Part shown: one piece after another, positions 3,201-20,733 of the stretch
How positions within the stretch are numbered: position 1 is the stretch's first letter
Layout: each line of letters opens with the position of its first letter
Source of the DNA: JAWLHK01 sp041690355 [NCBI: bacterium]
GTDB lineage: Bacteria > J088 > JAWLBW01
Assembly (NCBI GenBank): GCA_041690355.1
Contig: JAWLHK010000035.1
Span: 1-20,733, forward strand
Length of the DNA stretch: 20,733 nucleotides
Direction: 5' to 3'
Notes under the pieces: generated by a model
What the model was told of the DNA's origin: nothing
The model's input: only the letters and a program-made list of their open reading frames with translations
Database searches by the model: none
Translations under genes and position numbers: made by a program

Positions 3201-3336
3201 TGGCGGTCGTGTCGTCATCATCCGTCGTGTTGTCGGTGGTGCGCCGGGGGCCCGGATCCGAGCTCGTGCAGGCCAACGCGGCCAGCAGGGGAAACAGCAG
3301 TGCGATACGCGTCAGATGCTTTCCGTGGGTACGCAT
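277..3336 (-). CDS. Surface lipoprotein with Ig-like domains and 14 RCC1-type propeller blades
   Basis: The 1019-residue product starts with a short basic segment, a hydrophobic stretch and LAALAC, so Cys23 is a likely lipidation site; Ala rather than Leu at -3 is off the commonest lipobox. A Thr/Asp-rich linker follows. Residues ~45-325 hold about three Ig/cadherin-like modules with VNDAP boundaries and TYTP-D-G-DSFT motifs. The rest carries 14 RCC1-like repeats, each with the signature C-x(8-13)-CWG (one CFG, one CAG) followed by a G-Q-LG-like segment. Fourteen blades equals two seven-bladed propellers, and the recurring Cys pair suggests one disulfide per blade outside the cytoplasm. The start is fixed by AGGAGG at 3345-3350. 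Ligand or adhesion function is inferred from the architecture; no partner gene is adjacent. Confidence 0.9.
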   Translation of the reverse strand: MRTHGKHLTRIALLFPLLAALACTSSDPGPRRTTDNTTDDDDTTATVAITLTAAAVTVDEDGSIDVTVTAEVKNSDDAPVFVVDAAPAEGTLSGNGPTWTYTPAADFHGSDSLQVHAEIGSVKSETITIDITVRPVNDAPAADGDSFSTDEDVPHAGTLAGSDVDGDALTFHVATGPAHGTLALASAGSFTYTPDADYNGADSFTFTTRDGTVHSAAATVSITVDAVNDAPVVWPRPIAVFEAKTYAGTVTASDAEGDAVTWESAVLPGGGTVTWVDAAAGTFTFTPAAGFAGAATFAVRATDDQALASAWTVVTVEVYARQLLGASPWGACAIDNLGAAACWGYGPPGPQSANPATTAVREGTLATDWTFVATSGQHGCLINDAFELHCWGGNWSGQLGPASVNAWEDQPVFVGAGWAAVVAPADYTCGIDVAGVLWCWGSAQSGRLGLGDVDGQTFATPQHVDSAGDGWRSISGSTSNMCGVKRDGTLWCWGSNGGYLLGFGGDSNIPLRIGADSDWSTVANSGSTACAVKTGGTLWCWGYNTEGTLGYDPASFPIEYAPKLVGLATNWADVAVSGGHTCAIDTSGAISCFGANGQGQLGVANGPGTYLPQPVGGTYSGVGVMSSSSCARDMAGAAWCWGDNSGGVLGAGATPDHSTPAPVNSSLWSGFSAGQGHNCGLQGGTLWCWGDNSYGQLGDGGTIARSVPLQTGTGTGWTAVETGSGVTCGLQAGEIWCAGYNNYGTVGNSASPWYSSPDFLREETNSLWTDLSLTRYLACAVRADTSLWCWGYNNYAGAGTTPSLRVLVPTQVGTGTGWLRAAAGHEHACGIKTDGTLWCWGRNDQGQLGIGATSPDDCFGMACAKSPQQAGSATDWVEVTAGSAMTCGIRDTAGARTLWCWGAGYLWGSTSSNVPLQEPGGGVNWALVRASPGGHQCAVGTDGALWCWGYNGSGELGTGDKTARAQLTQVGSDTDWADVSVNYSHSCATKTDQTLHCWGAGNLGDGKAWTETPRAVVWP

Positions 3337-3368: not shown

Positions 3369-3422
3369 GTGCACCGTACCACTCGGGGGAACGATAAGCA
3401 AATGCTGCACCGCACGGTGCAC
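3369..3422 (-). promoter_or_regulatory. Inverted repeat bracketing a possible promoter of the lipoprotein gene
   Basis: GTGCACCGT (3369-3377) and ACGGTGCAC (3414-3422) are perfect 9-bp arms. Between and over them the minus strand reads TTGCTT, 17 bp, TACGGT, a weak sigma-70-like match placed suitably for the gene starting at 3336. A third partial site, GCACCG (3407-3412), lies against the distal arm. It could be an operator. Confidence 0.35.
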
Positions 3423-3631
3423 GCTGCTCGCCGGCGCTCGCGGGAAGGGCAAAAACAGAAAGGGGGGGAATACCCTTCCGCAACCCAGGGCTCTGCCCTG
3501 GGCAGAATGCGAATCGCCCCTTCAGGGCTCTTCCTCAAGCGGGCCTGCACGTCGCGGAACTTCGGCAGGGCGCTGAGGAGCCCGGTGCTTGCCGGATGAT
3601 CTGCCATTTGCGATCTGCCATCTGTCATTCG
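3422..3631. repeat. Dispersed ~200-bp repeat, copy 1
   Basis: This stretch matches 4211-4409 in the same orientation. Shared blocks are CGCTCGCGGGAAGGGCAAAA, then CCCTTCCGC and a perfect 8-bp hairpin CCCAGGGC-TCT-GCCCTGGG (3484-3502), then CGCCCCTTCAGGGCTCTT, then CTTGCCGGAT running into a 7-bp-period tract. The middle part diverges. No ORF explains the conservation. With the second copy it brackets a DoxX gene. Confidence 0.8.
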
Positions 3632-3633: not shown

Positions 3634-3709
3634 GAGCCCAGGAGAGCACGTGCCCTCACGGTAACCGCCCACCGTGACCGTGCGTACACGCCACGTGCAT
3701 GCTGGAATC

Positions 3710-4150
3710 ATGGAACCCTCGGCCCGCTGGGACGACATCGGAAAACTGGTGCTTCGCTGGACCGTGGCGGCGCTCATGCTTTTCCACGGCGTCTACAAGA
3801 TCGAACACGGCATCGCCTGGATGGCGGAACCGCTGAGGCAGTTCGGCCTCCCGTTCTTCATCGGCTACAGCGTTTACGTGGCAGAGGTCGTGGCGCCCGT
3901 GCTGCTGATCCTCGGGCTCTTCACCCGACTGTCGGCGCTCGCCATCGCCTTCGACATGGTCATGGCGGTTGTCCTGGTGTTGCGCGATCAGGCCTTCACC
4001 CGCAAGGAGATGGGGGGCGGCTGGGCCATCGAGCTCGAAGCGTTCTTCTTCTTCGCCTCTCTCGCCATCGTCTTTCTCGGCGCGGGCCGGTATGCGATCG
4101 GACGACGGACTGACAGCGGACGCCGGACGTCGGACGCCGGACGTCGGTAA
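3710..4150 (+). CDS. DoxX-family small membrane protein
   Basis: The 146-residue product has the DoxX pattern: a first helix ending in FHGVYKIEHG, then two hydrophobic helices around residues 50-95 with the AEVVAPVLLILGLFTR motif, a polar loop, and a last helix rich in Phe and Ala. DoxX-like proteins are inner-membrane proteins associated in several systems with quinone- or thiol-linked redox enzymes; no catalytic residue can be assigned here. ATG 3710 is preferred because an upstream in-frame ATG at 3674 would add a basic tail before the first helix; the ribosome site is weak. The gene stands alone between two copies of a ~200-bp repeat. Its last ~15 codons, rich in RRTSDAGRR-like residues, are written by a 7-bp repeat and look acquired rather than conserved. 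Confidence 0.75.
   Translation: MEPSARWDDIGKLVLRWTVAALMLFHGVYKIEHGIAWMAEPLRQFGLPFFIGYSVYVAEVVAPVLLILGLFTRLSALAIAFDMVMAVVLVLRDQAFTRKEMGGGWAIELEAFFFFASLAIVFLGAGRYAIGRRTDSGRRTSDAGRR
4117..4147 (+). repeat. Heptad repeat tract inside the 3' end of the DoxX gene
   Basis: CGGACGC and CGGACGT alternate for four units followed by CGG, all at 7-bp spacing. The tract encodes the Arg/Asp/Ser-rich tail and abuts the TAA stop at 4148-4150. Confidence 0.8.
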
Positions 4151-4210: not shown

Positions 4211-4409
4211 CGCTGCTTGCCGACGCTCGCGGGAAGGGCAAAACAAAAGAGGTATCCCTTCCGCTACCCAGGGCTCTGCCCTGGGCAAAAAGCGCATCGC
4301 CCCTTCAGGGCTCTTTCTCAGGCGGGAACGCGGCGCCCGTTCGGCAATGATCGACGGCAACCGGCACTTGCCGGATAATCTGCCATCTGCAATCTGCCAT
4401 CGGTCATTG
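4211..4409. repeat. Dispersed ~200-bp repeat, copy 2
   Basis: Same orientation and block order as 3422-3631, including the hairpin CCCAGGGC-TCT-GCCCTGGG (4267-4285) and the terminal heptad tract. Just upstream, at 4172-4197, are a CCCCCGGGGG palindrome and a small CCTTG/CAAGG hairpin that copy 1 lacks. No gene lies between 4151 and 4590. Confidence 0.8.
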
Positions 4410-4590: not shown

Positions 4591-6861
4591 ATGCTCGATC
4601 TCACGAACTGCGATCGCGAACCGGTACACATCCCGGGCTCCATTCAACCGTTCGGCGCCCTGCTTGTGCTCGACCGCGACGGCCACACCGTGCGCCGCTG
4701 CAGCGCCAACGTCACCGCCATGATGGACCTGCCGCAGCCGCCCGGCCGGCCCTTTCGCCTGGCCGCCCTGTTCGTGCCCGAGGCCCTCGCCGACATTCAG
4801 GACGCGATTGCCGCCCTGGGCGGTGAAGAAGGTATCGGCCCCACCCTGCGGGTGCGGGGCCACGCCGGCCGTTTCGAGGTTACCCCGTGCCGCAGCGGCC
4901 GCGATCTGATTCTCGAGGTCGAGCCCGAGCCGCGCCCCGGGCCCGACCCGCAGCCTGGCGACCGCTTTCAGACCGCCGCGATGGCCGCGCTCGAGGGGGC
5001 CGACAGCGTGGCCGATCTCTGGGCCGTGGCCGCCCGCGAACTGCGCCGGCTGAGCGGCTACGAGCGCGTTCTGGTCTACCGCTTTCACCCCGACGATCAC
5101 GGCGAAGTTGTCGCCGAAGACTGCGACAGCGCCCTCGAACCGTATCTGGGCCTGCACTACCCGGCCTCCGATATTCCCGAGCCCGCGCGACGCGTGTTCC
5201 TCCTGAACCGGGTGCGGATGATTCCCGACGTCGCGTACGAGCCGGTCTCGATCATGCCGCTCGCCGGCGAGACGACGCCGGTGGATCTGACGCGGTCGAT
5301 GCTGCGCAGCGTTTCGCCCATCCATCTGGAATACATGCACAACATGGGACAACGCGCTTCGCTCACCCTCTCGCTCGTCGTCGGCGGGCGCCTGTGGGGG
5401 CTCATCACCTGCGCACACCACTCGGGACCCCGCTTCGCCCCGCCCGCCCTGCGCGCCGCCTGTGAAGCGATCGCGCGCTTCGTGGCGACGCTGATACCCG
5501 TCAAGGAATACATGGAAGACCTGCGCGAGCACAACCGGATCCGCACGACCTACGCGACGCTGCTGCGGCAGATGGAGAGCGAACGGGAATTTCTGCAGAG
5601 CCTCACCCGGTCGCCGGTGAACCTGCTGTCGCTGATTCCGGCCCATGGCGCGGCCACCTTCATCCGGGAGGAGAACCATTGGCGCACGTTCGGCGCCACG
5701 CCGCCCCCTGACGTACTCGACACGCTCGCTGTCTGGCTCGCGCGCAAAGGAGACCAGACGATGCAGTCCGAGGACGCGCTCCCCCGGACGTTCGCGCCCG
5801 CCGAGGAGCACGGGGCGACGGCGGGGGGCATGCTCGCGATCGGGATCCCCGATCTGGCCGGAACGCTCGTGCTCTGGTTTCGCCCCGAGGTCGTGCGCAC
5901 GGTCACCTGGGGCGGCGATCCGCGCAAGGCGGCCGAAGGCGAGGGGATGCGCCTCCATCCGCGCAAGTCGTTCGAGGCGTGGAAAGAGGATGTGCACGGC
6001 CGCGCCGAGCCGTGGCCCCGCTGGACGCTCGAAGCCGCGCGGGAGCTGCGCATCGGCCTGCTCACCGTCGACCTGCGCCGGCGCCTGCAGCGGGAGCGCA
6101 GCGCAAGAAGCGAGGCCGAGCAGGCGAACCGGATCAAGGAGGATCTGATGGCGTTCGTCTCTCACGACCTGAAGAATCCCATCGGCGCCATCCGGCTGAA
6201 CGCCGAGATTCTGCGCCGCCTCGTCTCACCCGCCGACATCGCCGAAGCCGACCGCCTGCTCGAATCGATTGAACGCACGTCGGAGCGGATGCGCGAACTC
6301 ATCGACGAGCTGCTCGACGTCGCGCGCATCGAGGCGGGCCGCATGGTGTTTCACTTCAGCAGCTGCCGGGCCGCCGACCTGGTCGCCGACACGTTCGAGG
6401 TCCTGCGCCCGCACGCCGACGCCAAGGGTATCGTCCTGCGGTTCGAGCCGGCAGGCGAAGCGATCTGCGTGCACTGTGATCACGGGCGCATGCTGCAGGT
6501 GTTGGCGAACCTCGTCGGCAACGCCATCAAGTTCACCGGTTCGGGAGGCGAGGTCAGGGTTGCGGTGCGCGAAACCAGTGACGGCACCGAATGGGCCATT
6601 CAGGACACGGGAGCCGGGATACCGCCCGAGCACCTGCCGCACATCTTCGATCGCTACTGGCACACGAAGCAGGGGCGGGCAGGCGGCACCGGACTCGGCC
6701 TGGCCATCGCGAAGGGGATCGTCGAAGCCCACGGCGGCGCGATTCACGCCGAGAGCCGCCCGGTTGAAGGAACGACCTTCCGATTCACGCTGCCGCGGGA
6801 CGAGGATGCACCCAGACCTTCGCGGGAAAACCATGCCGGGCATCACGCCCACAACGCATAG
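4591..6861 (+). CDS. bphP: Bacteriophytochrome sensor histidine kinase
   Basis: The 756-residue product is a full-length red/far-red photosensor kinase of usual size. The N-terminal PAS-like region has Cys7 before PGSIQPFG, the expected biliverdin attachment site in bacteriophytochromes. The GAF domain carries SDIP (Asp194) and HLEYMHNMGQRAS. The PHY domain has the tongue motif PRKSFEAWKE. The kinase follows: H-box SHDLKNP with His525 as likely phosphorylation site, N-box around NLVGNAIKF, G1 DTGAGIP and G2 GGTGLGLAI. No response regulator is fused or adjacent. ATG 4591 gives the expected Cys position; the only in-frame upstream ATG (4573) meets a stop at once, and no good ribosome site is visible. 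It overlaps the heme oxygenase that would supply its chromophore. Confidence 0.95.
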   Translation: MLDLTNCDREPVHIPGSIQPFGALLVLDRDGHTVRRCSANVTAMMDLPQPPGRPFRLAALFVPEALADIQDAIAALGGEEGIGPTLRVRGHAGRFEVTPCRSGRDLILEVEPEPRPGPDPQPGDRFQTAAMAALEGADSVADLWAVAARELRRLSGYERVLVYRFHPDDHGEVVAEDCDSALEPYLGLHYPASDIPEPARRVFLLNRVRMIPDVAYEPVSIMPLAGETTPVDLTRSMLRSVSPIHLEYMHNMGQRASLTLSLVVGGRLWGLITCAHHSGPRFAPPALRAACEAIARFVATLIPVKEYMEDLREHNRIRTTYATLLRQMESEREFLQSLTRSPVNLLSLIPAHGAATFIREENHWRTFGATPPPDVLDTLAVWLARKGDQTMQSEDALPRTFAPAEEHGATAGGMLAIGIPDLAGTLVLWFRPEVVRTVTWGGDPRKAAEGEGMRLHPRKSFEAWKEDVHGRAEPWPRWTLEAARELRIGLLTVDLRRRLQRERSARSEAEQANRIKEDLMAFVSHDLKNPIGAIRLNAEILRRLVSPADIAEADRLLESIERTSERMRELIDELLDVARIEAGRMVFHFSSCRAADLVADTFEVLRPHADAKGIVLRFEPAGEAICVHCDHGRMLQVLANLVGNAIKFTGSGGEVRVAVRETSDGTEWAIQDTGAGIPPEHLPHIFDRYWHTKQGRAGGTGLGLAIAKGIVEAHGGAIHAESRPVEGTTFRFTLPRDEDAPRPSRENHAGHHAHNA

Positions 6862-7435
6862 CCTGCATCAGCGACTGCGCGCAGACACGGCCGAACTGCA
6901 TCGGCTCTCCGAGCGCGCGGTCGCCGTCGACGCCGTAGAGACCGTCGACGCCTATATCCGGCTGCTCGAAGGCTACCACGGCCTCTATGCCCGCCTCGAG
7001 CCCGCCATCGCCGCACGCCTTCCCGAGATCGACGCAGACGCCGGGGGGCGCGCGCACCGCAAGCTCTCCTGGCTGCGGGCGGATCTTCGGCATTTCGGCC
7101 TGGCGGATGCGGATCTGCAACGCCTGCCGCTTCTGCCCCACCCCGCCTGGCTGGGGGGAGGTGCCGAGGCCCTGGGCGCGGCCTACGTACTCGAAGGCGC
7201 GACCCTCGGCGGGAGCGTCGTCGCGCGCGTCTTCGGCGATCGGTTCGGGCTCGTGCCCCGAGCGGGCCTGCGCTTTTTTCACGGCTACGGCGCACAGACG
7301 CGAAGCCGGTGGAAGACGTTTCTCGCGTTCCTCGAGACGCGCGCCCGGGACGAGGACGTGCACGCGGCGGTGATCGGAGGCGCCGAGCGCACGTTTGAGG
7401 AATTCATCCGCTGGTTCGGCGTCCGGAAGCCATAG
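6833..7435 (+). CDS. bphO: Heme oxygenase (biliverdin-producing, BphO type)
   Basis: The 200-residue protein fits the bacterial heme oxygenase family. LRADTAELH near the N-terminus gives His23 as proximal heme ligand, the distal-helix motif is YVLEGATLGGSVVARVF, and FHGYGAQTRSRW is typical of the family. Heme oxygenases open heme to biliverdin, CO and iron, and biliverdin is the chromophore of the phytochrome encoded just upstream. The start overlaps the phytochrome end by 29 bp, implying translational coupling. An in-frame ATG at 6806 with GAGG directly before it would add nine residues and cannot be excluded. The order kinase-then-oxygenase is the reverse of some known bphO-bphP operons. 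Confidence 0.92.
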   Translation: MPGITPTTHSLHQRLRADTAELHRLSERAVAVDAVETVDAYIRLLEGYHGLYARLEPAIAARLPEIDADAGGRAHRKLSWLRADLRHFGLADADLQRLPLLPHPAWLGGGAEALGAAYVLEGATLGGSVVARVFGDRFGLVPRAGLRFFHGYGAQTRSRWKTFLAFLETRARDEDVHAAVIGGAERTFEEFIRWFGVRKP

Positions 7436-7577: not shown

Positions 7578-8558
7578 ATGCGTTGGGGAATTCTGCTCCT
7601 GGGAATGATGCTGGTCCTGTCCGGAAACGCAGAGGCGCAGTCGGCGCCCGGAGCCGAGGCCGCCGAGCCGGGAGGCGCCGCGGATCAGGTCCTCGAAGAG
7701 GCCGCCGGAGAGGCCGATTCCGCCGATGCGGCTGACGCGTCGGAGGGGGACGCGCCGGTCGAAGAGCCGCAGCTCCCCTTCGAATACATTACCGGCCCCG
7801 CGACCGGAGCCATCGGCGACCTTGCCGCGATTGCCGTTCCCGAAGAGTATCTGTTCGTCGACCGGGCCAACGTCGGCGCCTTTCTCGAAAGCAGCGGCAA
7901 CATGGCCGACGGCGACGAACTCGGCATCCTGCTGAGCTCGAGCGAGTCCGGTGAATACTGGGCGCTCTTCGTCTTTGACGACATCGGCTACATTCAGGAC
8001 GCCGATAAGGAAGAGTTGAACGCCGACGAGATGCTCGAGTCGATGCGCGAAGGCACGGCGGCCAGCAACGAGGCCCGCCGCGAGCGCGGCCTTGCCGAAA
8101 TGGAGCTGCTCGGCTGGCACACGCCCCCCTTCTACAACCCCGAGACCCAGCGGCTCGAGTGGGGTCTGCGGTACCGGAGCGACAACGGCGAGACCGTGAA
8201 CTACCACACGCGCATTCTGGGCCGCCACGGCGTCATGCGCGTCATCATCGTCGCATCGCCCGAAGACCTCCCGATGGCCCTCCCCGCCGTCCAGCGCGAT
8301 CTCGCCGGCTTCACCTTCAACGACGGCCAGCGCTATGCGCAGTGGACGCAGGGTGACAAGCTGGCCAGCGTAGGGCTCGCGGCGCTCGTGGCCGGCGGGG
8401 CCGGAGCGGCCGTTGCGAAAGCCGGCCTGCTCAAGAAACTGTGGAAGGTGATCGTCTTCGGCGTCATCGGCCTCTTTGCCGCCGTTCGCCGCTTCTTCCG
8501 CAAAGAGCACGTGCCGCAGAACACCCTGCCTCCGGATCAGCCCGACACGACCGTCTGA
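7578..8558 (+). CDS. DUF2167 family membrane-anchored protein
   Basis: The 326-residue product has a signal peptide (residues 1-21, ending NAEAQ), an Ala/Glu/Asp-rich linker to about residue 65, a soluble domain, and a C-terminal membrane region (about 262-310) ending in a basic segment. The soluble part matches DUF2167: conserved stretches include GYIQDADKEELNADE, SNEARRERG, LLGWHTPPFYNPETQRLEWG, NYHTRILGRHGVMRV and TQGDKLASVGLAALVAGG. The family is found in many Gram-negative bacteria with unknown biochemistry. ATG 7578 is supported by GAGG eight bases upstream and by the signal peptide. The next gene starts 5 bp after the stop, so the two are probably co-transcribed. Confidence 0.85.
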   Translation: MRWGILLLGMMLVLSGNAEAQSAPGAEAAEPGGAADQVLEEAAGEADSADAADASEGDAPVEEPQLPFEYITGPATGAIGDLAAIAVPEEYLFVDRANVGAFLESSGNMADGDELGILLSSSESGEYWALFVFDDIGYIQDADKEELNADEMLESMREGTAASNEARRERGLAEMELLGWHTPPFYNPETQRLEWGLRYRSDNGETVNYHTRILGRHGVMRVIIVASPEDLPMALPAVQRDLAGFTFNDGQRYAQWTQGDKLASVGLAALVAGGAGAAVAKAGLLKKLWKVIVFGVIGLFAAVRRFFRKEHVPQNTLPPDQPDTTV

Positions 8559-8563
8559 TCGCG

Positions 8564-9448
8564 ATGGACGGAGCGTTGACCGCGGCGCTGCTGGCCGCCC
8601 TTTACCTGACGGAATGCCTGGCGCTTCTCCGCGACGGAGAGGCGGCGGTGCGCATTTCGTTCGGCCGTCGGGGCAGCCTGGTCACGGCGCCGCTCGTCCT
8701 CAAGCCCATCCTCCCGACCGGATTTTTCCTGCGCGCCCGCCGGTTCGGCCCCGGCGGGCCGGGCGGAATTCCGGCAATGGAGGCGCGCACGCAGGCGTGG
8801 AACGTCGCGGATGCCCGGGCCGAGTGGGATCGCGTGCGCAGCGCCGTCGCCCCGCTGCGCGTCTGGACGACCCTCTACGCCATCGCCTTTCTGTGCGCGA
8901 CGGGCCTGCTCGCCCTGTCGCCGGCGGCGCTGCTTGCCCTCGGAGCCGGGCGGGTGGGCGCGGTGCTGATCGGCTTGCACCTCGGCGCCATCCTGCTGAC
9001 GCAGATCGCCATGCGACGCCTGGGATCAGGCGGACGAGTACGGCAGGGGATTCTCACGGCGATCTCGCCGTTCCACGCCATGCGCAGCGTCGACGCGCTG
9101 ACCGGCGAGGCCCTGATCCGCTATGAACTTCCGGTGATCGCGCACGTGGCGGGACGCCCCCGCGAGGTTCGCCGCCTCGCCCGGCGCCTCTGGGCCGCGC
9201 TCGAAGAGCAGCCGGCCGATGGGGAACTCCCGCCGGCCGGCGGAAGGGAGACCCGCGAGGCGCGGCGGGGGGCCCTGCTCGCCTTTCTGGCGCAGGTCGG
9301 CCTGTCGCCGGCGGAGCTTCTGCAAGCGCCCCCTCCCGAATCCGGCGCCGACCGTTTCTGTCCGGCCTGTCACGCGGCGTACACGAGCGAAGCCGGCGAT
9401 CGCTGCAGCGATTGCGGCGTACCCCTGCGTGCCTACGGGCTCTCGTAG
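8564..9448 (+). CDS. Membrane protein with C-terminal zinc ribbon, unknown function
   Basis: I do not recognise a named family. The 294-residue product starts with a hydrophobic segment, has a polar region to about 105, then a hydrophobic region with roughly two or three helices (about 105-155), and a cytoplasm-like tail. The tail ends in a zinc ribbon CxxC-x11-CxxC (Cys266, Cys269, Cys281, Cys284). The middle also contains ISPFHAMRSVDALTGEALIRYELPVI. It begins 5 bp after the DUF2167 stop with a weak ribosome site, suggesting translational coupling and a joint role at the inner membrane. A small GC hairpin and heptad tracts follow. Confidence 0.7.
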   Translation: MDGALTAALLAALYLTECLALLRDGEAAVRISFGRRGSLVTAPLVLKPILPTGFFLRARRFGPGGPGGIPAMEARTQAWNVADARAEWDRVRSAVAPLRVWTTLYAIAFLCATGLLALSPAALLALGAGRVGAVLIGLHLGAILLTQIAMRRLGSGGRVRQGILTAISPFHAMRSVDALTGEALIRYELPVIAHVAGRPREVRRLARRLWAALEEQPADGELPPAGGRETREARRGALLAFLAQVGLSPAELLQAPPPESGADRFCPACHAAYTSEAGDRCSDCGVPLRAYGLS

Positions 9449-12247: not shown

Positions 12248-12305
12248 GCCGCGCGACACCGCGTGACCAGCCTGACCATGCCTGATTTGGACGAACCTTG
12301 AAAAT

Positions 12306-12335
12306 ACAGGGGCCCCGACCTCTCGGAGCCCCTGT
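12306..12335. terminator. Bidirectional intrinsic terminator between convergent operons
   Basis: ACAGGGGC pairs with GCCCCTGT, extended inside by CCGA/TCGG around CCTC. On the plus strand a pyrimidine-rich run follows; on the minus strand ATTTTC follows. It separates the acyl-CoA dehydrogenase from the FMN reductase. Confidence 0.8.
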
Positions 12336-12370
12336 CCCTTCTACTCTTCCCTTTGATATCAGATGCCGGC

Positions 12371-12976
12371 TCACGCAGCGCCGGACACCAGCGCTGCCGG
12401 CAACTCGCCGACCCGCAGCGGCCGCAGCGCCGCTGCCCACCGGTGCAGCTCATCCAGCATGGCCAGGGCCGACTCGTTGAGCCCGTCGCTCTCCCGCAGG
12501 TTTCCGTCGTGGCCGAGCTTTTCGTGAACGAACGGGATGGCCACCGCTTCGGGGATGGGCATCATCTTCAACGCCGTGGCGATCTGCTTGGTCATCTGCA
12601 CCGACCGCATTCCGCCCGAGAGTCCGCCGTAGCTCACAAAGCCCACCGGCTTGTAGTGCCACTCCCGGAAGAGATAGATGAGTGCGTTCGAGAGCGAAGG
12701 TGGAGTCGAGAAGTCGTACTCCGGCGTGACGAATACGAAGGCATCCGCCTGATCGACCGATGCGCTCCACCGCTGCGTATGCCCGTTCGCATAGTTGCCC
12801 TGCATCGGATGTCCGGCTTCGTCAAATACCGGCAGATCGAAAGAGGCCAGATCGACGAGCGCCACCTCGAACCGGCCGTGCGTGCGGGCAACTTCGGCCA
12901 TCCATCGGGAGACCCCCGGCCCCACCCGGCCGGGCCGGGTGCTTACGGCAATGACGTGCAATTTGAGCTTGTCCAT
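12371..12976 (-). CDS. NADPH-dependent FMN reductase-like flavoprotein
   Basis: The 201-residue protein has the flavodoxin-like fold of the NADPH-dependent FMN reductase family: strand-loop VSTRPGRVGPGV at the N-terminus for FMN phosphate, TPEYDFSTPPSLSNAL at about 85-100, and VGFVSYGGLSGGMRSVQ. Members reduce FMN, quinones, azo dyes or metal ions with NAD(P)H; the substrate here is unknown. ATG 12976 has GAGAGG upstream and lies 12 bp after the thioredoxin stop, so the two are co-transcribed. The gene ends a minus-strand set whose first gene is a copper chaperone under a CueR-type promoter. A role in copper or oxidative stress is inferred from that context. Confidence 0.88.
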   Translation of the reverse strand: MDKLKLHVIAVSTRPGRVGPGVSRWMAEVARTHGRFEVALVDLASFDLPVFDEAGHPMQGNYANGHTQRWSASVDQADAFVFVTPEYDFSTPPSLSNALIYLFREWHYKPVGFVSYGGLSGGMRSVQMTKQIATALKMMPIPEAVAIPFVHEKLGHDGNLRESDGLNESALAMLDELHRWAAALRPLRVGELPAALVSGAA

Positions 12977-12988
12977 GTGCTATTCCTC

Positions 12989-13342
12989 TCAAGTGTCCTG
13001 CCGGGACCGAAGCTTCGTGCCGAGAATGCGGCGGAGTTCCATCTCGAGCCCCCGGCGGGGAAGCGCGCCGCGTATGCGACCGGCTTCGACGCCGTTCTCA
13101 AACACGATGAGCGTCGGCAGCCCCTTGACGCCATAATGCGCTGACAGCGCGCCCTCCTCGTCGACGTTCACCGATACGATTTCAACCTGGTCGGCCCACT
13201 CGTGGGCAAGCGCCTCCAGGGTGGGTGCGATGGCCCGGCAGGGTGCGCACCAGGGTGCGCCGAAGTCTACGACCGTCGGGAGCGAAGACCTTTGAAGGCG
13301 ATCCTCGAATCCCCGCGCGTCGATTTCCTCTACGGTTGGCAT
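12989..13342 (-). CDS. Thioredoxin
   Basis: The 117-residue cytoplasmic thioredoxin has FGAPWCAPCR with active-site cysteines Cys32 and Cys35 at standard positions, and the cis-proline segment KGLPTLIVFENG. No signal peptide is present. The start at 13342 has a ribosome site AGGAACAGGA and fits the family length; a longer in-frame extension to 13429 would run back through the upstream terminator and is unlikely. It lies downstream of the copZ-like and His-rich genes but is separated from them by an intrinsic terminator, so it may be expressed by read-through. The FMN reductase follows 12 bp later. Confidence 0.95.
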   Translation of the reverse strand: MPTVEEIDARGFEDRLQRSSLPTVVDFGAPWCAPCRAIAPTLEALAHEWADQVEIVSVNVDEEGALSAHYGVKGLPTLIVFENGVEAGRIRGALPRRGLEMELRRILGTKLRSRQDT

Positions 13343-13393
13343 ATTCCTGTTCCTTTCGGTTGCTTCCGCGACCTTGCCGCGCGAAGCAAAAGA

Positions 13394-13419
13394 GCCGGCC
13401 GTCGCGATGGACGGCCGGC
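13394..13419 (-). terminator. Intrinsic terminator inside the copZ operon
   Basis: GCCGGCCGTC (13394-13403) pairs perfectly with GACGGCCGGC (13410-13419). On the minus strand the stem is followed by TCTTTTGCTT. It lies 11 bp after the stop of the His-rich protein and about 50 bp before thioredoxin; no good promoter is visible in the remaining gap. Confidence 0.8.
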
Positions 13420-13430
13420 AACGCGTCACC

Positions 13431-13859
13431 TCAGTGATGATGCAGGTTGTGTTTACCGCCGGGAGCGGAAGGGAGTGCGAGCGGCAACGGATAGACCGCG
13501 CGCCCCTCCTTTTCGCCGCCCCGGGCGGCGTCGAGGATCAGCTCGCCCTTGTCGGGCACCGATCCGCGGGGTGTTTCGCAGAAAAAGTGGTCGCTGTGCG
13601 CTGCGCACTGAAGCGCGACCACGCTGTCTCCGTTCACGATGCGGCCCCGGACCGAACCCCCCGAGACGCTTGGTTTCCCGAGCGCGATATCGAGCAGCAG
13701 GACCTTGAATCCGCCGTCGAGCGCCAGGACCTCGGTGTGAAAGGCGCCCGGCATTCGGATCACGCCTCCGTGAGGCCCGGGCCGGTCTTCGCCGTGGGCC
13801 CAGACCTGCGAGATCGGGCTCACGGCGAACATCAGAAGAATGAGCGCAATGGTTTTCAT
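13431..13859 (-). CDS. Exported His-rich protein, probable copper binder
   Basis: The 142-residue protein has a clear signal peptide with a cleavage site after QVWA, so the mature chain would begin HGEDRPGPHGG with histidine first. It then has MPGAFHTEVLALDGG, an all-beta-looking middle with two cysteines (QCAAHSDHFFC), and a C-terminal HNLHHH. Free N-terminal histidines coordinate copper in CopC- and LPMO-type proteins; that this one does is inference. It resembles uncharacterised small periplasmic proteins of proteobacteria with the same PGPHGG motif, a family I cannot name. GGAG lies upstream of ATG 13859, 12 bp after the CopZ-like stop, placing it in the CueR-controlled set. Periplasmic copper capture or delivery is the likeliest role. 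Confidence 0.75.
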   Translation of the reverse strand: MKTIALILLMFAVSPISQVWAHGEDRPGPHGGVIRMPGAFHTEVLALDGGFKVLLLDIALGKPSVSGGSVRGRIVNGDSVVALQCAAHSDHFFCETPRGSVPDKGELILDAARGGEKEGRAVYPLPLALPSAPGGKHNLHHH

Positions 13860-13871
13860 CGAGACACTCCT

Positions 13872-14081
13872 TCAGGCCAGCTTGCGCGAGCTCTTGACCG
13901 GGTAGCCGGCCTCTTCGATGAGGGCCTTGATGGACGCCTCGTCCCGGCCGCTCTTGACCCGGACGATCTGGCTCGGCACGTCGACCGAGACCTCGACCCC
14001 GGCATCGATCGAACGCAGTGCATAGGCGATGCTGTTCGCGCAGCTCGCACAGTCCATCCCTTCGACTTTCATTTCATACAT
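13872..14081 (-). CDS. copZ: CopZ-like copper chaperone (single HMA domain)
   Basis: The 69-residue protein is a single heavy-metal-associated domain with VEGMDCASCANSI, so Cys11 and Cys14 form the MxCxxC copper site. Such proteins bind Cu(I) in the cytoplasm and hand it to CopA, which is encoded nearby. ATG 14081 is chosen for family length and for GGAGA nine bases upstream. A MerR-type operator-promoter lies 36-66 bp upstream, predicting induction by the Cu(I) sensor encoded at 18341. Asp replaces the more common Thr or His in the metal loop, which may tune affinity or selectivity. Confidence 0.9.
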   Translation of the reverse strand: MYEMKVEGMDCASCANSIAYALRSIDAGVEVSVDVPSQIVRVKSGRDEASIKALIEEAGYPVKSSRKLA

Positions 14082-14116
14082 GGTCTTTCTCCGTGGTTGA
14101 TGTTGCGGACAAGTAC

Positions 14117-14147
14117 AGCCTGCTCCTTCCAACGATGGGAAGGTCAA
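14117..14147 (-). promoter_or_regulatory. CueR-type operator-promoter of copZ
   Basis: On the minus strand TTGACC (14142-14147) is followed by a 19-bp spacer holding CCTTCC-N7-GGAAGG and then CAGGCT (14117-14122), a poor -10. The over-long spacer with an inverted repeat is diagnostic of MerR-family activation, and the repeat closely resembles the E. coli copA CueR box. Confidence 0.85.
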
Positions 14148-14169
14148 GGCCGTTTGCAGAACAGTCGAT

Positions 14170-14673
14170 TCATGCGGCCACCGGGCTGCCGGCGATCCGC
14201 TGCCTTGCGTTGCGCCCGGCCCATCGGCGGGTCGCAATTCCATCGGCCGACCAGCGCCCGCCTCCGGAGACCAGAACGACAGCGGCAAGACCGATGGCAA
14301 GGATGTGGAACTCAAAACCTTCGCCGGCCTGGTTGCCGTACCAGTTCATGAAGAAGCCGTTTGCGAGATGGCTGGTGAGGGCTGCGACGGCCATGGTGAT
14401 GCCGATGGCGGCGGCGGCCAGTCGTGACGCTCCGCCGGCGATGAGCAACATCGCGCCGAGAGACTCGGCGAGTACGGCGGCGAGCGCCAGCGGCGCGGGG
14501 ATGCCCATGGTCTGGGTGAAGAAGCCCATCGTGGCGTCAAAGCCGTAGCCGCCGAACCAGCCGAAGACCTTCTGCAGCCCGTGCGGAAGGATGACGATGC
14601 CCAGCGCGAGCCGCGCCAGGAGGCCGACGAGCGAGGCGTCGGTGACGAGGGTACGAACGAGAGTGTTCTGCAT
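14170..14673 (-). CDS. DoxX-family membrane protein under a CueR-type promoter
   Basis: The 167-residue protein has about four membrane helices and DoxX hallmarks: [23 protein letters not shown], an [16 protein letters not shown] helix, a third helix ending before NGFFMNWYG, and [16 protein letters not shown]. Function in copper stress is not established; DoxX-like proteins elsewhere work with thiol or quinone redox partners. ATG 14673 has AAGGA upstream. A longer start at 14721 would fall almost at the predicted transcription start and is unlikely. It has its own MerR-type promoter back-to-back with that of copA, while copZ just downstream has another, so this gene is a separate unit of the same predicted regulon. 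It shares only family-level likeness with the DoxX gene at 3710. Confidence 0.85.
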
Positions 14674-14730
14674 GGCGTTTTCCTTTCGGTTCTTTCGTGG
14701 ATCCCGGCTCCATGCCGGCAACCGATTACA

Positions 14731-14761
14731 AGGCTATTCGTTCCAATGATGGGAAGGTCAA
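14731..14761 (-). promoter_or_regulatory. CueR-type operator-promoter of the DoxX gene
   Basis: On the minus strand TTGACC (14756-14761), a 19-bp spacer with CTTCC-N8-GGAA-type dyad, then TAGCCT (14731-14736). The -35 lies 15 bp from the divergent -35 of copA. Confidence 0.85.
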
Positions 14762-14776
14762 GAAGAATTTTTCCCC

Positions 14777-14807
14777 TTGACCTTCCAACGGTTGGAAGCC
14801 GTACGCT
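14777..14807 (+). promoter_or_regulatory. CueR-type operator-promoter of the copA operon
   Basis: TTGACC (14777-14782), exactly 19 bp, TACGCT (14802-14807). The spacer contains the perfect dyad CTTCCAACGGTTGGAAG (14782-14798). The predicted transcript start near 14814 excludes the in-frame ATG at 14809 and supports ATG 14839 for copA. Confidence 0.9.
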
Positions 14808-14838
14808 CATGTCAGACCCGAACGAAAGGAGTTCGAAC

Positions 14839-17291
<2,453 letters not shown>

Positions 17292-17295
<4 letters not shown>

Positions 17296-18344
17296 AAAAG
17301 GTGACTCTTGCCAATCCGGGACGTTATCAAGGCGCAGTTGCCGACCTGCCCGAGGGGTCGACCGTGCTGGACGCCGCTCTTCAGGCAGGCATCCCGTATC
17401 CGCACTCGTGTCGCGGCGGGCGCTGCGGTGCATGTAAATCGAGGCTCATCGAAGGGAGCGTCGAGCACCTGCCGAGTCTCCGCTTCACCCTGACGGAAGA
17501 GGAGAAGCGGGCTGACTACTTTCTCGCCTGTCGCGCAAGGGCCTTGAGCGACATTACGGCGGCCTGGCTTCGCGAGCAGGACGGGACGACACCGCCGCAC
17601 AGCTTCTCTGCCTTCGTGGCGCGCTCGGAGACCTTGACCCACGACATCCGGAGGCTTGAGCTCGAACTGGAGCGTCCCGCCGTGTTCCGTCCCGGGCAGT
17701 ATGCGCAGCTTCGAATCGGCGGATGTGCGGCGCGCAGTTTCTCCATGGCCAACCAGCCAGGTTCGCGGCGGCTCGTGTTCTATATCCGGCGCGTCGAGGG
17801 GGGCTGCGCAAGCCGCGCGGTCGAACGTCTTCGGCCGGGAGACGTTGTCACCGGAACGGGCCCGCATGGCGACGCCTTTCTGCACGGCGCACACAGCGGA
17901 CCGATTCTCGCCGTCGCCGGGGGCTCCGGGCTCGCTCCGATTCAATCGATCGTCGAAGGGGCCCTTGCGGCGGGCTTCCGGCAGCCGATCCACCTGTATT
18001 TCGGCGCGCGGAGCGGACGCGATCTCTATCTCCTCTCGCATTTCCTTACCCTGGAGCAGCAGTATGCCAACCTGCGGTTCGTACCCGTGATCGATGACGG
18101 CACGGGCTCTTCACTCGTGCGCCGAGGGCGAATCGCAGACGCCCTGGCGGCAGACTGGCCGACCTTTGCCGGAAACTGGCAGACTTATCTGGCGGGTCCG
18201 CCGCCGATGGTCGAGGCGCTGTCGAGGCTCGTGACCGAACGCGGCGTCGCCCCCGACCAGGTCTACAGCGACCCCTTTCTTACCACCGGCGAACTTGCGG
18301 CCGACGACCGGCCGCCCGTGCAGCATCAGGAGGCGCAGTCATGA
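17292..18344 (+). CDS. 2Fe-2S ferredoxin/FAD/NAD(P)H oxidoreductase fusion
   Basis: The 350-residue protein combines a plant-type ferredoxin domain (residues 1-~90; Cys40, Cys45, Cys48, Cys80, spacing Cx4CxxC-x31-C) with a ferredoxin-reductase module: FAD site RSFSMAN, then [10 protein letters not shown] and [12 protein letters not shown] for the pyridine nucleotide. This domain order matches reductase components of ring-hydroxylating dioxygenases and methane-type monooxygenases and AscD-like proteins, yet no oxygenase is nearby. Instead it overlaps copA (ATGA, with GGAGG upstream) and cueR (ATGA), so it is translationally tied to copper export. NAD(P)H-driven electron transfer to copper or to a copper-stress partner is an inference. 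All cofactor motifs look intact. Confidence 0.92.
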
Positions 18345-18730
18345 ACATCGGAGAAGCCGCGACACAGTCGGGGGTGAACGCGAAGCTCATACGCCACTAC
18401 GAGTCGATCGGAATCATCCCCAAGGCGGCGCGCACCGGTTCGGGCTATCGCGTCTACTCCTCCTCCGAAGTGCACATTCTGCGCTTTGTGAAGCGGGCGC
18501 GCGGCCTGGGGTTTTCCATGAAGGAGATCAAGAAGCTGGTGAGCCTCTGGCGCAACCGGTCACGGGCGAGCGCCAACGTGAAGGCCCTCGCGCTCGGCCA
18601 CGTCGAAGAGATGGAGCGCAAGATCGCCGAGATGGAGGCAATGGCGCGCACGCTGCGGCACCTGGCCGAGCACTGCCAGGGTGACGATCGGCCCGAGTGC
18701 CCGATTCTCGAAGATCTGGCCGGCTGCTGA
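18341..18730 (+). CDS. cueR: CueR-type Cu(I)-responsive MerR-family activator
   Basis: The 129-residue regulator has the MerR winged helix at the N-terminus ([26 protein letters not shown]), a dimerisation helix, and a metal loop Cys112-x7-Cys120 (HCQGDDRPEC) at exactly the E. coli CueR positions. Ser77 is present where divalent-metal sensors have Cys, so monovalent Cu, Ag or Au sensing is expected. CueR binds between -35 and -10 and untwists a 19-bp spacer; three such promoters lie at 14117-14807. The gene is last in the copA operon, its start overlapping the reductase stop with AGGAGG upstream, giving positive feedback rather than the separate regulator gene seen in E. coli. Confidence 0.95.
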   Translation: MNIGEAATQSGVNAKLIRHYESIGIIPKAARTGSGYRVYSSSEVHILRFVKRARGLGFSMKEIKKLVSLWRNRSRASANVKALALGHVEEMERKIAEMEAMARTLRHLAEHCQGDDRPECPILEDLAGC

Positions 18731-20228: not shown

Positions 20229-20298
20229 CGTCCCCTCGGCGAGCGCGCACGACAGCGACGCGTGGTGCAAGAGCGATCGCCGCGCGATGCATTCCTGA
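20229..20298 (+). pseudogene. 3' remnant of a ribbon-helix-helix antitoxin gene
   Basis: Twenty-odd codons encode [17 protein letters not shown] and so on to the same TGA as the intact antitoxin downstream. No N-terminal part precedes it. Two of the three substitutions against the intact copy change residues (Ile to Ser, Arg to Cys), as expected without selection. The fragment may now serve only to carry a terminator behind the thiolase. Confidence 0.75.
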
Positions 20299-20312
20299 TT
20301 CTTGATTCCTGA
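20292..20312. repeat. Heptad repeat tract (3 units), copy A
   Basis: TTCCTGA, TTCTTGA, TTCCTGA at exact 7-bp spacing, overlapping the remnant's stop codon. Confidence 0.65.
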
Positions 20313-20315
20313 TCG

Positions 20316-20347
20316 ACAAGGGCCGCGTGGGTGCACGGGGCCCTTGT
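20316..20347 (+). terminator. Intrinsic terminator after the thiolase
   Basis: ACAAGGGCC (20316-20324) pairs perfectly with GGCCCTTGT (20339-20347), followed by TTCAT. The T-run is short. It lies about 125 bp after the thiolase stop and is part of the 137-bp repeat. Confidence 0.65.
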
Positions 20348-20352
20348 TTCAT

Positions 20353-20388
20353 CCCCCACTCTCCCCCTCCCCCACTCCCCCACTCCGC
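20353..20388 (-). other. C-rich tract with G-quadruplex potential on the minus strand
   Basis: Units CCCCCACT, CTCCCCCT, CCCCCACT, CCCCCACT follow each other with an 8-bp period. The minus strand has four runs of five G separated by loops of one to five bases, a canonical quadruplex pattern. Unlike the other short repeats here the period is 8, not 7. Confidence 0.5.
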
Positions 20389-20392
20389 CCTA

Positions 20393-20422
20393 TTGCGCCC
20401 CATGCATGCACAATGCTAGCAT
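20393..20422 (+). promoter_or_regulatory. Promoter with palindromic operator of the antitoxin
   Basis: TTGCGC (20393-20398), 18 bp, TAGCAT (20417-20422). The -10 sits in a perfect palindrome ATGCTAGCAT (20413-20422), fitting autorepression by a ribbon-helix-helix protein. Start of transcription would fall about at ATG 20430, suggesting a leaderless mRNA. Confidence 0.45.
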
Positions 20423-20429
20423 CATGGAC

Positions 20430-20666
20430 ATGGCCAACGTGACCATCCGTAATCTTCCCGAAGCCGTCGTCCGGCGCATCAAGCGGGCCGCCAGGGTCCG
20501 GGGCGTGTCCATGGAGCAGGAGCTCAGGGATCTGCTCGAAACCCGCTACGGCGCGCGCGAAAAACTGCTCGAGGATATCCGCAGCCGCTGGACATCCGTC
20601 CCCTCGGCGAGCGCGCACGACATCGACGCCTGGCGCAAGAGCGATCGCCGCGCGATGCATTCCTGA
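20430..20666 (+). CDS. FitA/VapB-like ribbon-helix-helix antitoxin, without an adjacent toxin
   Basis: The 78-residue protein opens MANVTIRNLPEAVVRRIKRAA, the strand-helix start of FitA-like ribbon-helix-helix antitoxins, followed by RGVSMEQELRDLLE as second helix and a toxin-binding-type tail ending [14 protein letters not shown]. In FitAB and VapBC pairs such a gene is followed, usually with overlap, by a PIN-domain RNase. Here a terminator hairpin lies about 18 bp after the stop and no toxin start is visible before the window ends 67 bp later. ATG 20430 is preferred over 20424 from family N-termini and promoter spacing; neither has a ribosome site. It may be an orphan remnant or a stand-alone regulator. 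Confidence 0.8.
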   Translation: MANVTIRNLPEAVVRRIKRAARVRGVSMEQELRDLLETRYGAREKLLEDIRSRWTSVPSASAHDIDAWRKSDRRAMHS

Positions 20667-20680
20667 TTCTTGATTCCTGA
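20660..20680. repeat. Heptad repeat tract (3 units), copy B
   Basis: Same TTCCTGA, TTCTTGA, TTCCTGA array as in copy A, overlapping the antitoxin stop. Confidence 0.65.
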
Positions 20681-20683
20681 TCG

Positions 20684-20715
20684 ACAAGGGCCGCGTGGGT
20701 GCACGGGGCCCTTGT
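20684..20715 (+). terminator. Intrinsic terminator after the antitoxin
   Basis: Identical hairpin to 20316-20347, ACAAGGGCC with GGCCCTTGT, 18 bp after the antitoxin stop. It would cut off any toxin gene further downstream unless read through. Confidence 0.65.
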
Positions 20716-20733
20716 TTCATCCCCCACTCTCCC

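What the first reader, a model, noticed from the sequence alone, without database searches (positions are those of the whole stretch)
12371..18730. Copper island that couples Cu(I) export to a set of redox proteins under one CueR
Three CueR-type promoters control CopZ, an exported His-rich protein, thioredoxin and an FMN reductase; a DoxX membrane protein; and CopA, a 2Fe-2S flavoprotein reductase and CueR. Known Cue/Cop regulons export and oxidise copper (CopA, CueO). This one has no multicopper oxidase but several reductants. Hypothesis: it keeps copper as Cu(I) for CopZ/CopA and repairs thiols damaged by copper.
Basis: partly seen in the sequence, partly recalled or inferred. Interest (0 to 1): 0.8.

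Follow-up and report, generated by a model that had tools for sequence, protein, structure and literature searches.

The report
Copper-export island with recurrent redox enzyme
This is a bacterial copper-defence gene island run by a copper sensor, and beside the usual copper pump it carries an electron-transfer enzyme that turns up next to the same pump and sensor in several other bacteria, so it is probably a real, little-noticed part of copper defence rather than a chance neighbour.

Summary
The gene list and three CueR-type promoters are real: three exact boxes with 19-bp spacers, none elsewhere in the window. The island codes for CueR, a P1B Cu(I) ATPase, a CopZ-like protein, an exported protein whose predicted fold matches Helicobacter CrdA, DoxX, and a 2Fe-2S/FAD/NAD reductase. 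One correction: a terminator-like hairpin separates copZ-hisP from thioredoxin and FMN reductase, so CueR control of those two is unproven. The reductase is the new part. It adjoins copper genes, or has its own CueR-like box, in 17 other loci: 12 of 15 plasmid places opened (12 of 12 at 42% identity or more; 0 of 3 lower) and 5 of 40 genome loci. Ten of 17 have glutaredoxin; copA-reductase-cueR recurs in 5. DoxX, Trx, FMN reductase and the CrdA-like protein occur in 0 of 17. CueR control of copper plus redox enzymes has a precedent (Bordetella copZ-prxgrx-gorB), but I found no paper on this reductase in open-licence PMC. Best reading: a CueR regulon variant with a dedicated NAD(P)H one-electron reductase that keeps copper as Cu(I) or supports thiol repair; the biochemistry is inferred.

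The parts
18341..18730 (+). cueR, Cu(I)-responsive MerR-family activator; ATG overlaps the reductase stop
   Evidence: TIGR02044 above cut-off; S77, C112, C120
17292..18344 (+). 2Fe-2S/FAD/NAD(P)H reductase (350 aa), overlaps copA stop by 4 nt and cueR start by 4 nt
   Evidence: Fer2, FAD_binding_6, NAD_binding_1; PDB best 5ogx, 4wqm, 1krh; recurrent in copper loci
14839..17295 (+). copA, P1B-1-type Cu(I) ATPase, two N-terminal HMA domains (818 aa)
   Evidence: TIGR01511 585 bits against cut-off 397 (scored on 14812-17292); CPCALG, YNTV and MAFSSVS motifs present; ATG after AAAGGAG
14777..14807 (+). CueR-type promoter of copA-reductase-cueR: box 14777-14797, -10 TACGCT
   Evidence: exact match, 19-nt spacer
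14731..14761 (-). CueR-type promoter of doxX: box 14741-14761, -10 TAGCCT
   Evidence: exact match, 19-nt spacer; 32-nt near-repeat of the copZ promoter, 84%
14170..14673 (-). doxX, small DoxX-family membrane protein
   Evidence: PF07681 60.8 bits; HvfX model 42.1 bits, below cut-off 80
14117..14147 (-). CueR-type promoter of copZ-hisP: box 14127-14147, -10 CAGGCT
   Evidence: exact match, 19-nt spacer; 22 nt lie between the doxX stop and the box, with no strong hairpin
13872..14081 (-). copZ-like HMA protein, MDCASC motif
   Evidence: PF00403; CopZ equivalog models below cut-off
13431..13859 (-). hisP: exported beta-sandwich protein with HHH tail, CrdA-like predicted fold, candidate periplasmic copper binder
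   Evidence: no Pfam or NCBIfam hit; model pLDDT 71; Foldseek CrdA E 8.5e-4; VIA Z 11.8, rmsd 2.2 over 93 residues, tied with DUF4426 at Z 11.3
13394..13419 (-). intrinsic-terminator-like hairpin between hisP and trx
12989..13342 (-). thioredoxin (CAPC); start of a likely separate trx-FMN reductase unit
   Evidence: PF00085 87.7 bits; TIGR01068 92.2 bits, just below cut-off 96.8
12371..12976 (-). NADPH-dependent FMN reductase family protein, 12 nt after trx, followed by a strong hairpin (folded stretch 12300-12345)
   Evidence: PF03358 116 bits; hairpin z -6.1

Best explanation
A chromosomal or mobile Cu(I)-detoxification island of the CueR type. Shown by sequence: CueR and three CueR-type promoters stand before doxX, copZ-hisP and copA-reductase-cueR. 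Inferred from the families: Cu(I)-CueR switches these on; CopZ buffers cytosolic Cu(I); CopA pumps it out; the CrdA-like exported protein binds it in the periplasm. Shown by comparison: the NAD(P)H-FAD-[2Fe-2S] reductase is a recurrent member of copper gene sets with CueR or CueR-like boxes in Alpha- and Gammaproteobacteria, often next to a dithiol glutaredoxin. Inferred: it is a one-electron reductase that protects the cytosol during copper stress. It most likely keeps copper as Cu(I), the form that CueR, CopZ and CopA handle, with glutaredoxin, thioredoxin or glutathione restoring copper-oxidised thiols. Thioredoxin and FMN reductase are probably a separate unit reached at most by read-through; DoxX is a local addition.
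For: Three exact boxes, 0 of 100 shuffles reach three. CueR and Cu-ATPase models above cut-off. 4-nt overlaps copA/reductase/cueR imply one mRNA. Reductase linked to copper genes or with its own CueR-like box in 12 of 12 plasmid places opened at 42% identity or more (12 of the 21 listed there) and in 5 of 40 genome loci. A box directly before reductase or grx-reductase apart from the copA promoter: L005, L007, L014, L075, L108, L148-L151 (1-2 mismatches, but 3 in L005, L150, L151). Only one box with 2 mismatches or fewer in 474,680 bases of 32 unlinked loci, itself before cueR-copA; four with 3 mismatches. 12 of 14 copper-linked reductases form a supported clade, 96/87. R44 in 14 of 15 and W296 in 15 of 15 copper-linked rows. 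Fold match of hisP to CrdA.
Against: No activity, partner or induction data. The window's reductase sits outside the supported clade on a long, weak branch (71/31); one clade of 14 is not rejected (p-AU 0.145) but not shown either. Most relatives found by sequence (35 of 40 genome loci) are not copper-linked, and 3 of 3 lower plasmid places serve aromatic-ring dioxygenase clusters, so the family is not copper-specific; those dioxygenase reductases also carry R44. In two gamma loci the reductase is impaired: L110 lacks the first cluster cysteine and L111 has a broken frame. Glutaredoxin is absent from the island here. Many of the 17 loci are related rhizobial islands.
Confidence: 0.6

Rival explanations
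1. The reductase is a dedicated Cu(II) reductase: electrons from NAD(P)H pass through FAD and the 2Fe-2S centre to Cu(II), feeding Cu(I) to CopZ and CopA.
For: One-electron 2Fe-2S chemistry suits Cu(II) to Cu(I). The review PMC7558416 (section 12 read) says CopZ and P1B ATPases handle Cu(I), that cytosolic reduction may be limiting, and that the cupric reductase CcoG, with two Fe-S clusters, worked in vitro with an artificial donor. Placement directly between copA and cueR in five other loci and the window. One His column separates the groups: 13 of 15 copper-linked rows have His at window position 62, unlinked rows mostly Tyr.
Against: The window itself has Ser at that column (it has a His three residues earlier), 6 unlinked or dioxygenase rows have His there too, and no other Cys or His column separates the groups. 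No copper site was recognised. The cytosol is already reducing. A separate glutaredoxin accompanies the reductase in 10 of 17 loci, which Cu(II) reduction alone does not need.
Confidence: 0.35
2. The reductase and glutaredoxin (or thioredoxin) form a thiol-repair path for copper-oxidised or glutathionylated proteins, functionally like PrxGrx-GorB in Bordetella.
For: Grx directly upstream of the reductase in 10 of 17 copper loci, CPDC dithiol motif in the three printed; Pfam Glutaredoxin confirmed in 5 of 6 sent, the sixth being the frame-broken L111; published CueR control of copZ-prxgrx-gorB (PMC7794356, sections 7, 8, 10 read).
Against: A plant-type 2Fe-2S carrier passes single electrons and is not known to me to reduce disulphides (recalled); 7 of 17 loci and the window's own copA operon lack glutaredoxin; the window's thioredoxin lies behind a terminator-like hairpin.
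Confidence: 0.25
3. The reductase supplies electrons to an oxygenase or Fe-S assembly and was captured by copper islands as a copper-tolerant replacement for a housekeeping ferredoxin reductase.
For: Nearest characterised families are BenC, T4MO and carbazole dioxygenase reductases; copper is known to damage Fe-S proteins (recalled).
Against: No gene annotated as an oxygenase near the reductase in the seven annotated copper-linked plasmid loci (the plasmid annotation is incomplete) or among the window genes scanned.
Confidence: 0.2
4. Chance neighbours: a standard copZ/copA/cueR island into which unrelated redox genes fell.
For: Trx, FMN reductase, DoxX and the CrdA-like gene do not recur in any of the 17 copper loci; sporadic distribution of the reductase.
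Against: For the reductase, chance is made very unlikely by recurrence, operon overlap and its own CueR boxes in several genomes. For DoxX, an exact CueR promoter argues for local recruitment.
Confidence: 0.1

Closest known systems
Enterobacterial Cue system (CueR, CopA, CueO)
   Same: CueR, 19-bp-spacer promoter, CopA
   Different: No CueO among the genes scanned in the window; adds reductase, DoxX and a CrdA-like protein
cupC/cupAR of Cupriavidus metallidurans and actP-hmrR
   Same: copA-cueR order; in cup a chaperone gene on the other strand (passages of PMC10304878; section 10 of PMC1526738)
   Different: A reductase lies between copA and cueR, and doxX between copA and copZ
copZ-prxgrx-gorB operon of Bordetella pertussis (PMC7794356)
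   Same: CueR control of a copper chaperone together with redox enzymes
   Different: Other enzymes: peroxiredoxin-glutaredoxin and glutathione reductase; no CopA in use; said to occur only in Bordetella and Achromobacter
Bacterial cupric reductases CcoG and RclA
   Same: A proposed job of making or keeping Cu(I); CcoG also uses Fe-S clusters (PMC7558416 section 12; PMC7527725 passages)
   Different: Different make-up: CcoG is membrane-bound with two tetranuclear clusters; RclA is MerA-like (as those papers describe them)
BenC/NdoR-type oxygenase reductases
   Same: Fer2-FAD-NAD architecture; about 38-40% identity to NdoR-type plasmid proteins
   Different: No oxygenase partner seen; CueR control; below the BenC model cut-off
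CrdA of Helicobacter pylori (for hisP)
   Same: Predicted fold, exported, sits in a copper gene set
   Different: 13% identity over the structural match; 9 His and a single Met after residue 21, whereas CrdA is Met-rich with no His (abstract of PMC9182242)
GIG/bufferin clusters with DoxX (HvfX, GigT)
   Same: A DoxX protein tied to copper response (passages of PMC5413113, PMC10304878, PMC12452194)
   Different: No DUF2282 or MNIO hit among the window genes scanned; HvfX model below cut-off

Membership tests
CueR regulon | Regulator matches CueR equivalog model | tested here: met
   TIGR02044 169.8 bits against 147.4; the stricter E. coli model NF007590 is not reached (105.8 against 244)
CueR regulon | Ser77 and the two Cu(I) cysteines 112/120 (positions recalled from E. 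coli CueR) | tested here: met
CueR regulon | CueR box in a promoter with 19-bp spacer before copA and copZ | tested here: met
   signal described in PMC1526738 section 10
CueR regulon | Copper induction and CueR binding | not testable with these tools
   needs RNA and ChIP or EMSA
P1B-1 Cu(I) ATPase CopA | Cu-ATPase model and CPC/YN/MxxSS motifs (motifs recalled) | tested here: met
   TIGR01511 585 against 397; E. coli CopA equivalog NF007952 not reached, 612 against 1316; CPCALG, YNTV, MAFSSVS
CopZ | CopZ equivalog model above cut-off | tested here: not met
   best 37 bits against 85; HMA domain PF00403 itself met
BenC-type oxygenase reductase | Fer2-FAD-NAD domain order | tested here: met
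BenC-type oxygenase reductase | Equivalog model cut-off | tested here: not met
   NF040810 173.9 against 430
BenC-type oxygenase reductase | Oxygenase partner nearby | tested here: not met
   none among the window genes scanned
HvfX/bufferin DoxX | HvfX model cut-off | tested here: not met
   42.1 against 80; the second DoxX at 3674-4150, away from copper genes, scores 42.6
HvfX/bufferin DoxX | Bufferin precursor and MNIO genes in the cluster | tested here: not met
   none among the window genes scanned
CrdA | Fold | tested here: met
   Foldseek E 8.5e-4, VIA Z 11.8, tied with a DUF4426 protein at 11.3, on a pLDDT 71 model from 3 sequences
CrdA | Met-rich copper motif | tested here: not met
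   one Met after residue 21; motif from the abstract of PMC9182242
Cupric reductase | NAD(P)H-dependent Cu(II) reduction | not testable with these tools
   needs enzyme assay
Bordetella-type copZ-redox operon | PrxGrx and GorB with copZ | tested here: not met
   thioredoxin and FMN_red instead, beyond a hairpin

The most novel reading that the evidence does not exclude
The reductase founds a CueR-controlled class of soluble NAD(P)H-dependent Cu(II) reductases (2Fe-2S flavoproteins) that, with glutaredoxin, hold copper as Cu(I) for CopZ and CopA. It would be an accessory copper-defence module spread by plasmids among Alpha- and Gammaproteobacteria.
Probability: 0.28. Interest if true: 0.72.

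Novelty: new variant of a known kind. Interest (0 to 1): 0.48.

Why it matters
How the bacterial cytosol guarantees that copper is Cu(I) for chaperones and exporters is an open point; [quoted passage not shown] A reductase fixed between copA and cueR, or carrying its own CueR-like box, in bacteria from two classes gives a concrete and easily tested candidate, in culturable rhizobia as well as in this organism.

Tried and rejected
Whole-genome checks of the window's own organism: not held, so neither the organism, the absence of CueO, nor chromosome versus plasmid could be settled. Its acyl-CoA dehydrogenase has 68-69% relatives in 5 of 150 genomes of the phylum, which does not name it.

The single genome-contig scan found 3 relatives, of which L001 is not copper-linked; L002 and L003 were scanned only for homologues of the window's proteins (L002 holds a thioredoxin and a split reductase hit, L003 the reductase alone).

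DoxX as a bufferin/HvfX protein: rejected as unspecific, since the second DoxX in the window, away from copper genes, scores the same. DoxX as a general CueR target: 0 of 21 relatives; two matches at 3 mismatches inside the DoxX reading frames of L133 and L134 were set aside.

FMN reductase-Trx-CopZ as a conserved set: 4 of 150 genomes hold a close FMN reductase, none with Trx, CopZ or a box within about 1.5 kb. The hisP gene: no plasmid hit better than E 0.6, 2 of 340 genomes, neither with a box or a homologue of the window's copper genes nearby.

Rows counted as unlinked although copper genes lie about 6 kb off: L087 (CopA-like) and L095 (CueR, CopA-like and a box). Ten of the 40 wide loci were cut short by contig ends (L078, L088, L090, L092, L093, L097, L098, L100, L104, L106), so linkage could be missed there. 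In the second tree near-copy L148 and the long rows L112 and L113 were left out, and L006, L150 and L151 were entered in neither tree. In the first tree L014 carried the label 'no' because its CueR box was recognised only later. Of 55 gamma genomes with a match (60 places), loci were given for 30 places and scanned, 6 of them at wide flank. The 9 plasmid places of the top 21 not opened are H4, H6-H9, H14, H16, H17, H19; of the lower 19 listed, three were opened (H22, H24, H26), and 744 further records were not listed.

Paper searches used: (open-licence PMC only). The Lactococcus copper-induced nitroreductase CinD is recalled; one search gave only a listing.
Full report
WHAT IS THERE. Eight genes occupy 12371-18730 as described. 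On the plus strand copA (ATG 14839), a Fer2-FAD-NAD reductase (17292-18344) and cueR (18341-18730) overlap by 4 nt each, so they are very probably one transcript. On the minus strand, reading leftwards from the shared promoter region, come doxX, copZ, a protein with a signal-like N-terminus and an HHH tail (hisP), thioredoxin and an FMN reductase. Acyl-CoA dehydrogenase genes lie on one side and a thiolase gene on the other. No RNA family at gathering score and no tRNA was found in the window.

PROMOTERS. TTGACCTTCC-N6-TGGAA occurs exactly three times in 20,733 bases, nowhere else with up to 3 mismatches, against 0.20 expected; 0 of 100 shuffles reach three. All three have a 19-nt spacer between TTGACC and a -10 of the form (C/T)A(G/C)(G/C)CT, the spacing that Permina et al. 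give for CueR/HmrR (PMC1526738, section 10). They serve copZ, doxX and copA. The doxX and copZ promoters are a 32-nt near-repeat, 84% alike, so doxX may have been recruited with a copied promoter (inference).

A CORRECTION. Eleven nt after the hisP stop comes a 10-bp, 9 G-C hairpin followed by TCTTTT, folding at -24.6 kcal/mol against a mean of -16.4 for shuffles, z -3.2, 1 of 200 shuffles as good. It is the only site that passes a strict scan of the window (two pairings of the one site are listed); 16 of 20 shuffles have none, 4 have one to three. The looser scan finds 5 terminator-like sites against 4.7 in shuffles, so the case rests on this site's strength and place, not on the count. Thioredoxin starts 51 nt beyond it. 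CueR control of thioredoxin and FMN reductase therefore rests on read-through and is unproven. Between doxX and copZ there is no such structure.

THE EXPORTED PROTEIN. hisP has no Pfam or NCBIfam match. Two weak relatives, 24% and 26% identical, gave a 3-row alignment and an all-beta model of pLDDT 71. Its best solved match is H. pylori CrdA (Foldseek E 8.5e-4; VIA Z 11.8, rmsd 2.2 over 93 residues). A DUF4426 protein at Z 11.3 is tied with it, and the copper-binding P19/FetP/FtrA group follows at Z 8.8-10.1. The Met-rich motif of CrdA is absent (abstract of PMC9182242), so it is CrdA-like in fold, not shown to be a CrdA. His30, His41 and Glu43 are invariant in the three rows and are candidate ligands (inference).

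THE REDUCTASE RECURS. tblastn found 784 plasmid records, all under 60% identity. I opened 15 places. All 12 opened among the 21 listed at 42% identity or more are copper-linked: H1, H2, H3, H5, H10, H11, H12, H13, H15, H18, H20, H21; H3 and H10 by a CueR-like box only. The three lower ones (H22, H24, H26) lie in dioxygenase or aromatic clusters. Forty loci were read at wide flanks, 34 of the 35 of the first class (the 35th is L001, unlinked) and 6 of the second; 5 of 40 are copper-linked: L074, L075, L108, L110, L111. Scanning the 30 gamma loci given at short flank added none.

ARRANGEMENTS in the 17 copper loci (several are related islands; L005, L150 and L151 share one, L014 and L148 another): copA-red-cueR in 5 (L004, L012, L110, L147, L152), as in the window; copA-grx-red-cueR in 2 (L074, L111); copA-grx-red-copZ in 1 (L006); a separate grx-red unit with a CueR-like box in 7 (L005, L007, L075, L108, L149, L150, L151; in L005, L150 and L151 the box has 3 mismatches); red alone with a box in 2 (L014, L148). 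In 32 unlinked loci (474,680 bases) the only box with 2 mismatches or fewer precedes a cueR-copA pair; four more have 3 mismatches. Window homologues of DoxX, HisP, Trx and FMN reductase were found in 0 of the 17 (phmmer E 1e-4).

PHYLOGENY. In the first tree (48 rows, 10 labelled) the copper label needs 3 changes against 9.2 for shuffles, 0 of 500 as low. In the second (51 rows), 12 of 14 copper-linked rows form a clade (96/87); the window and L012 fall outside on long, weakly placed branches; holding all 14 together is not rejected (p-AU 0.145). All 15 copper-linked rows of the alignment have Trp at window position 296 and 14 of 15 have Arg44 in the cluster loop, where the other rows mostly have Ala/Cys and Asn; the three dioxygenase reductases also have Arg44. 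His at window position 62 marks 13 of 15 copper-linked rows, but the window has Ser there. So the window's reductase is either an early branch of a copper clade or a parallel recruitment. The module is sporadic: of 299 genomes in a phylum-wide draw two (G456, G462) are known linked (13 of 299 match at 1e-80); 2 of 17 genomes match at 1e-110 in one family and 1 of 79 in another. With its plasmid carriage this suggests horizontal spread (inference).

RESULTS AGAINST. The reductase in L110 lacks the first cluster cysteine and that in L111 has a broken frame; draft errors or decay. 35 of 40 genome relatives are not copper-linked. Two of them, L087 and L095, have copper genes about 6 kb away and were counted as unlinked; ten of the 40 were cut short by contig ends. 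DoxX: 21 of 299 genomes have a relative at 1e-12, 0 of 21 with a CueR box at its promoter. The HvfX match is below cut-off and equal to that of a second DoxX in the same window.

HOW IT PROBABLY WORKS. Shown: gene order, boxes, recurrence. Inferred from family knowledge: CueR senses cytosolic Cu(I) and activates export (CopA), buffering (CopZ) and a periplasmic binder (hisP). The reductase moves single electrons from NAD(P)H through FAD and 2Fe-2S. The closest solved proteins are a P450 reductase (5ogx), toluene 4-monooxygenase and benzoate dioxygenase reductases. Cu(II) to Cu(I) is a one-electron step and CopZ/CopA take Cu(I), so Cu(II) reduction is the leading guess (0.35); thiol repair with glutaredoxin is next (0.25).

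WHAT IS KNOWN. CueR control of copper plus redox enzymes is published for B. pertussis copZ-prxgrx-gorB (PMC7794356, sections 7, 8, 10), where prxgrx induction by copper dropped markedly in a cueR mutant. The 2006 survey of CueR regulons names copA, cueO, a chaperone, cytochromes and GSTs (sections 10 and 14 read), and its main text holds none of the words ferredoxin, glutaredoxin, thioredoxin, reductase or DoxX. Word searches in PMC5552934 and PMC9948745 on copper genes of Rhizobiales and Methylorubrum turned up no such reductase. I found no report of this reductase in the searches, going by listings and the passages named; subscription papers are not covered.

VERDICT. A real CueR island and a new variant of a known kind.

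Noticed in passing
window 13394-13419 (-): Terminator-like hairpin that splits the supposed copZ-hisP-trx-FMN reductase operon.
   Followed up: yes
window 3674-4150 (+): A second DoxX gene away from copper genes, scoring the same on the HvfX model as the island's DoxX.
   Followed up: partly
window 3422-3543 and 4211-4326: Two similar repeats (71 nt at 92%, 42 nt at 86%) on either side of the second doxX; possibly a dispersed repeat element.
   Followed up: no
window 20229-20365 and 20597-20733: A 137-nt direct repeat, 98% identical, around a FitA-like antitoxin gene (20331-20666), reaching the window end.
   Followed up: no
window 4591-7435: Bacteriophytochrome histidine kinase overlapping a downstream heme oxygenase reading frame.
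   Followed up: partly
window 277-3336 (-): Large protein with bacterial Ig/cadherin-like domains and RCC1 repeats, probably a secreted beta-propeller (secretion is inferred).
   Followed up: no
L108 (unnamed gammaproteobacterial genome G456), 7997-9400 (-): CueR-like box, glutaredoxin and reductase as a stand-alone unit with no copA within about 8 kb; reductase frame intact.
   Followed up: partly
L007, L014, L148, L149: An RND efflux gene lies next to the grx-reductase or reductase unit, with a second CueR-like box (1-2 mismatches) facing it; possible further CueR targets. L075 has a box of the same sequence as that in L014.
   Followed up: no
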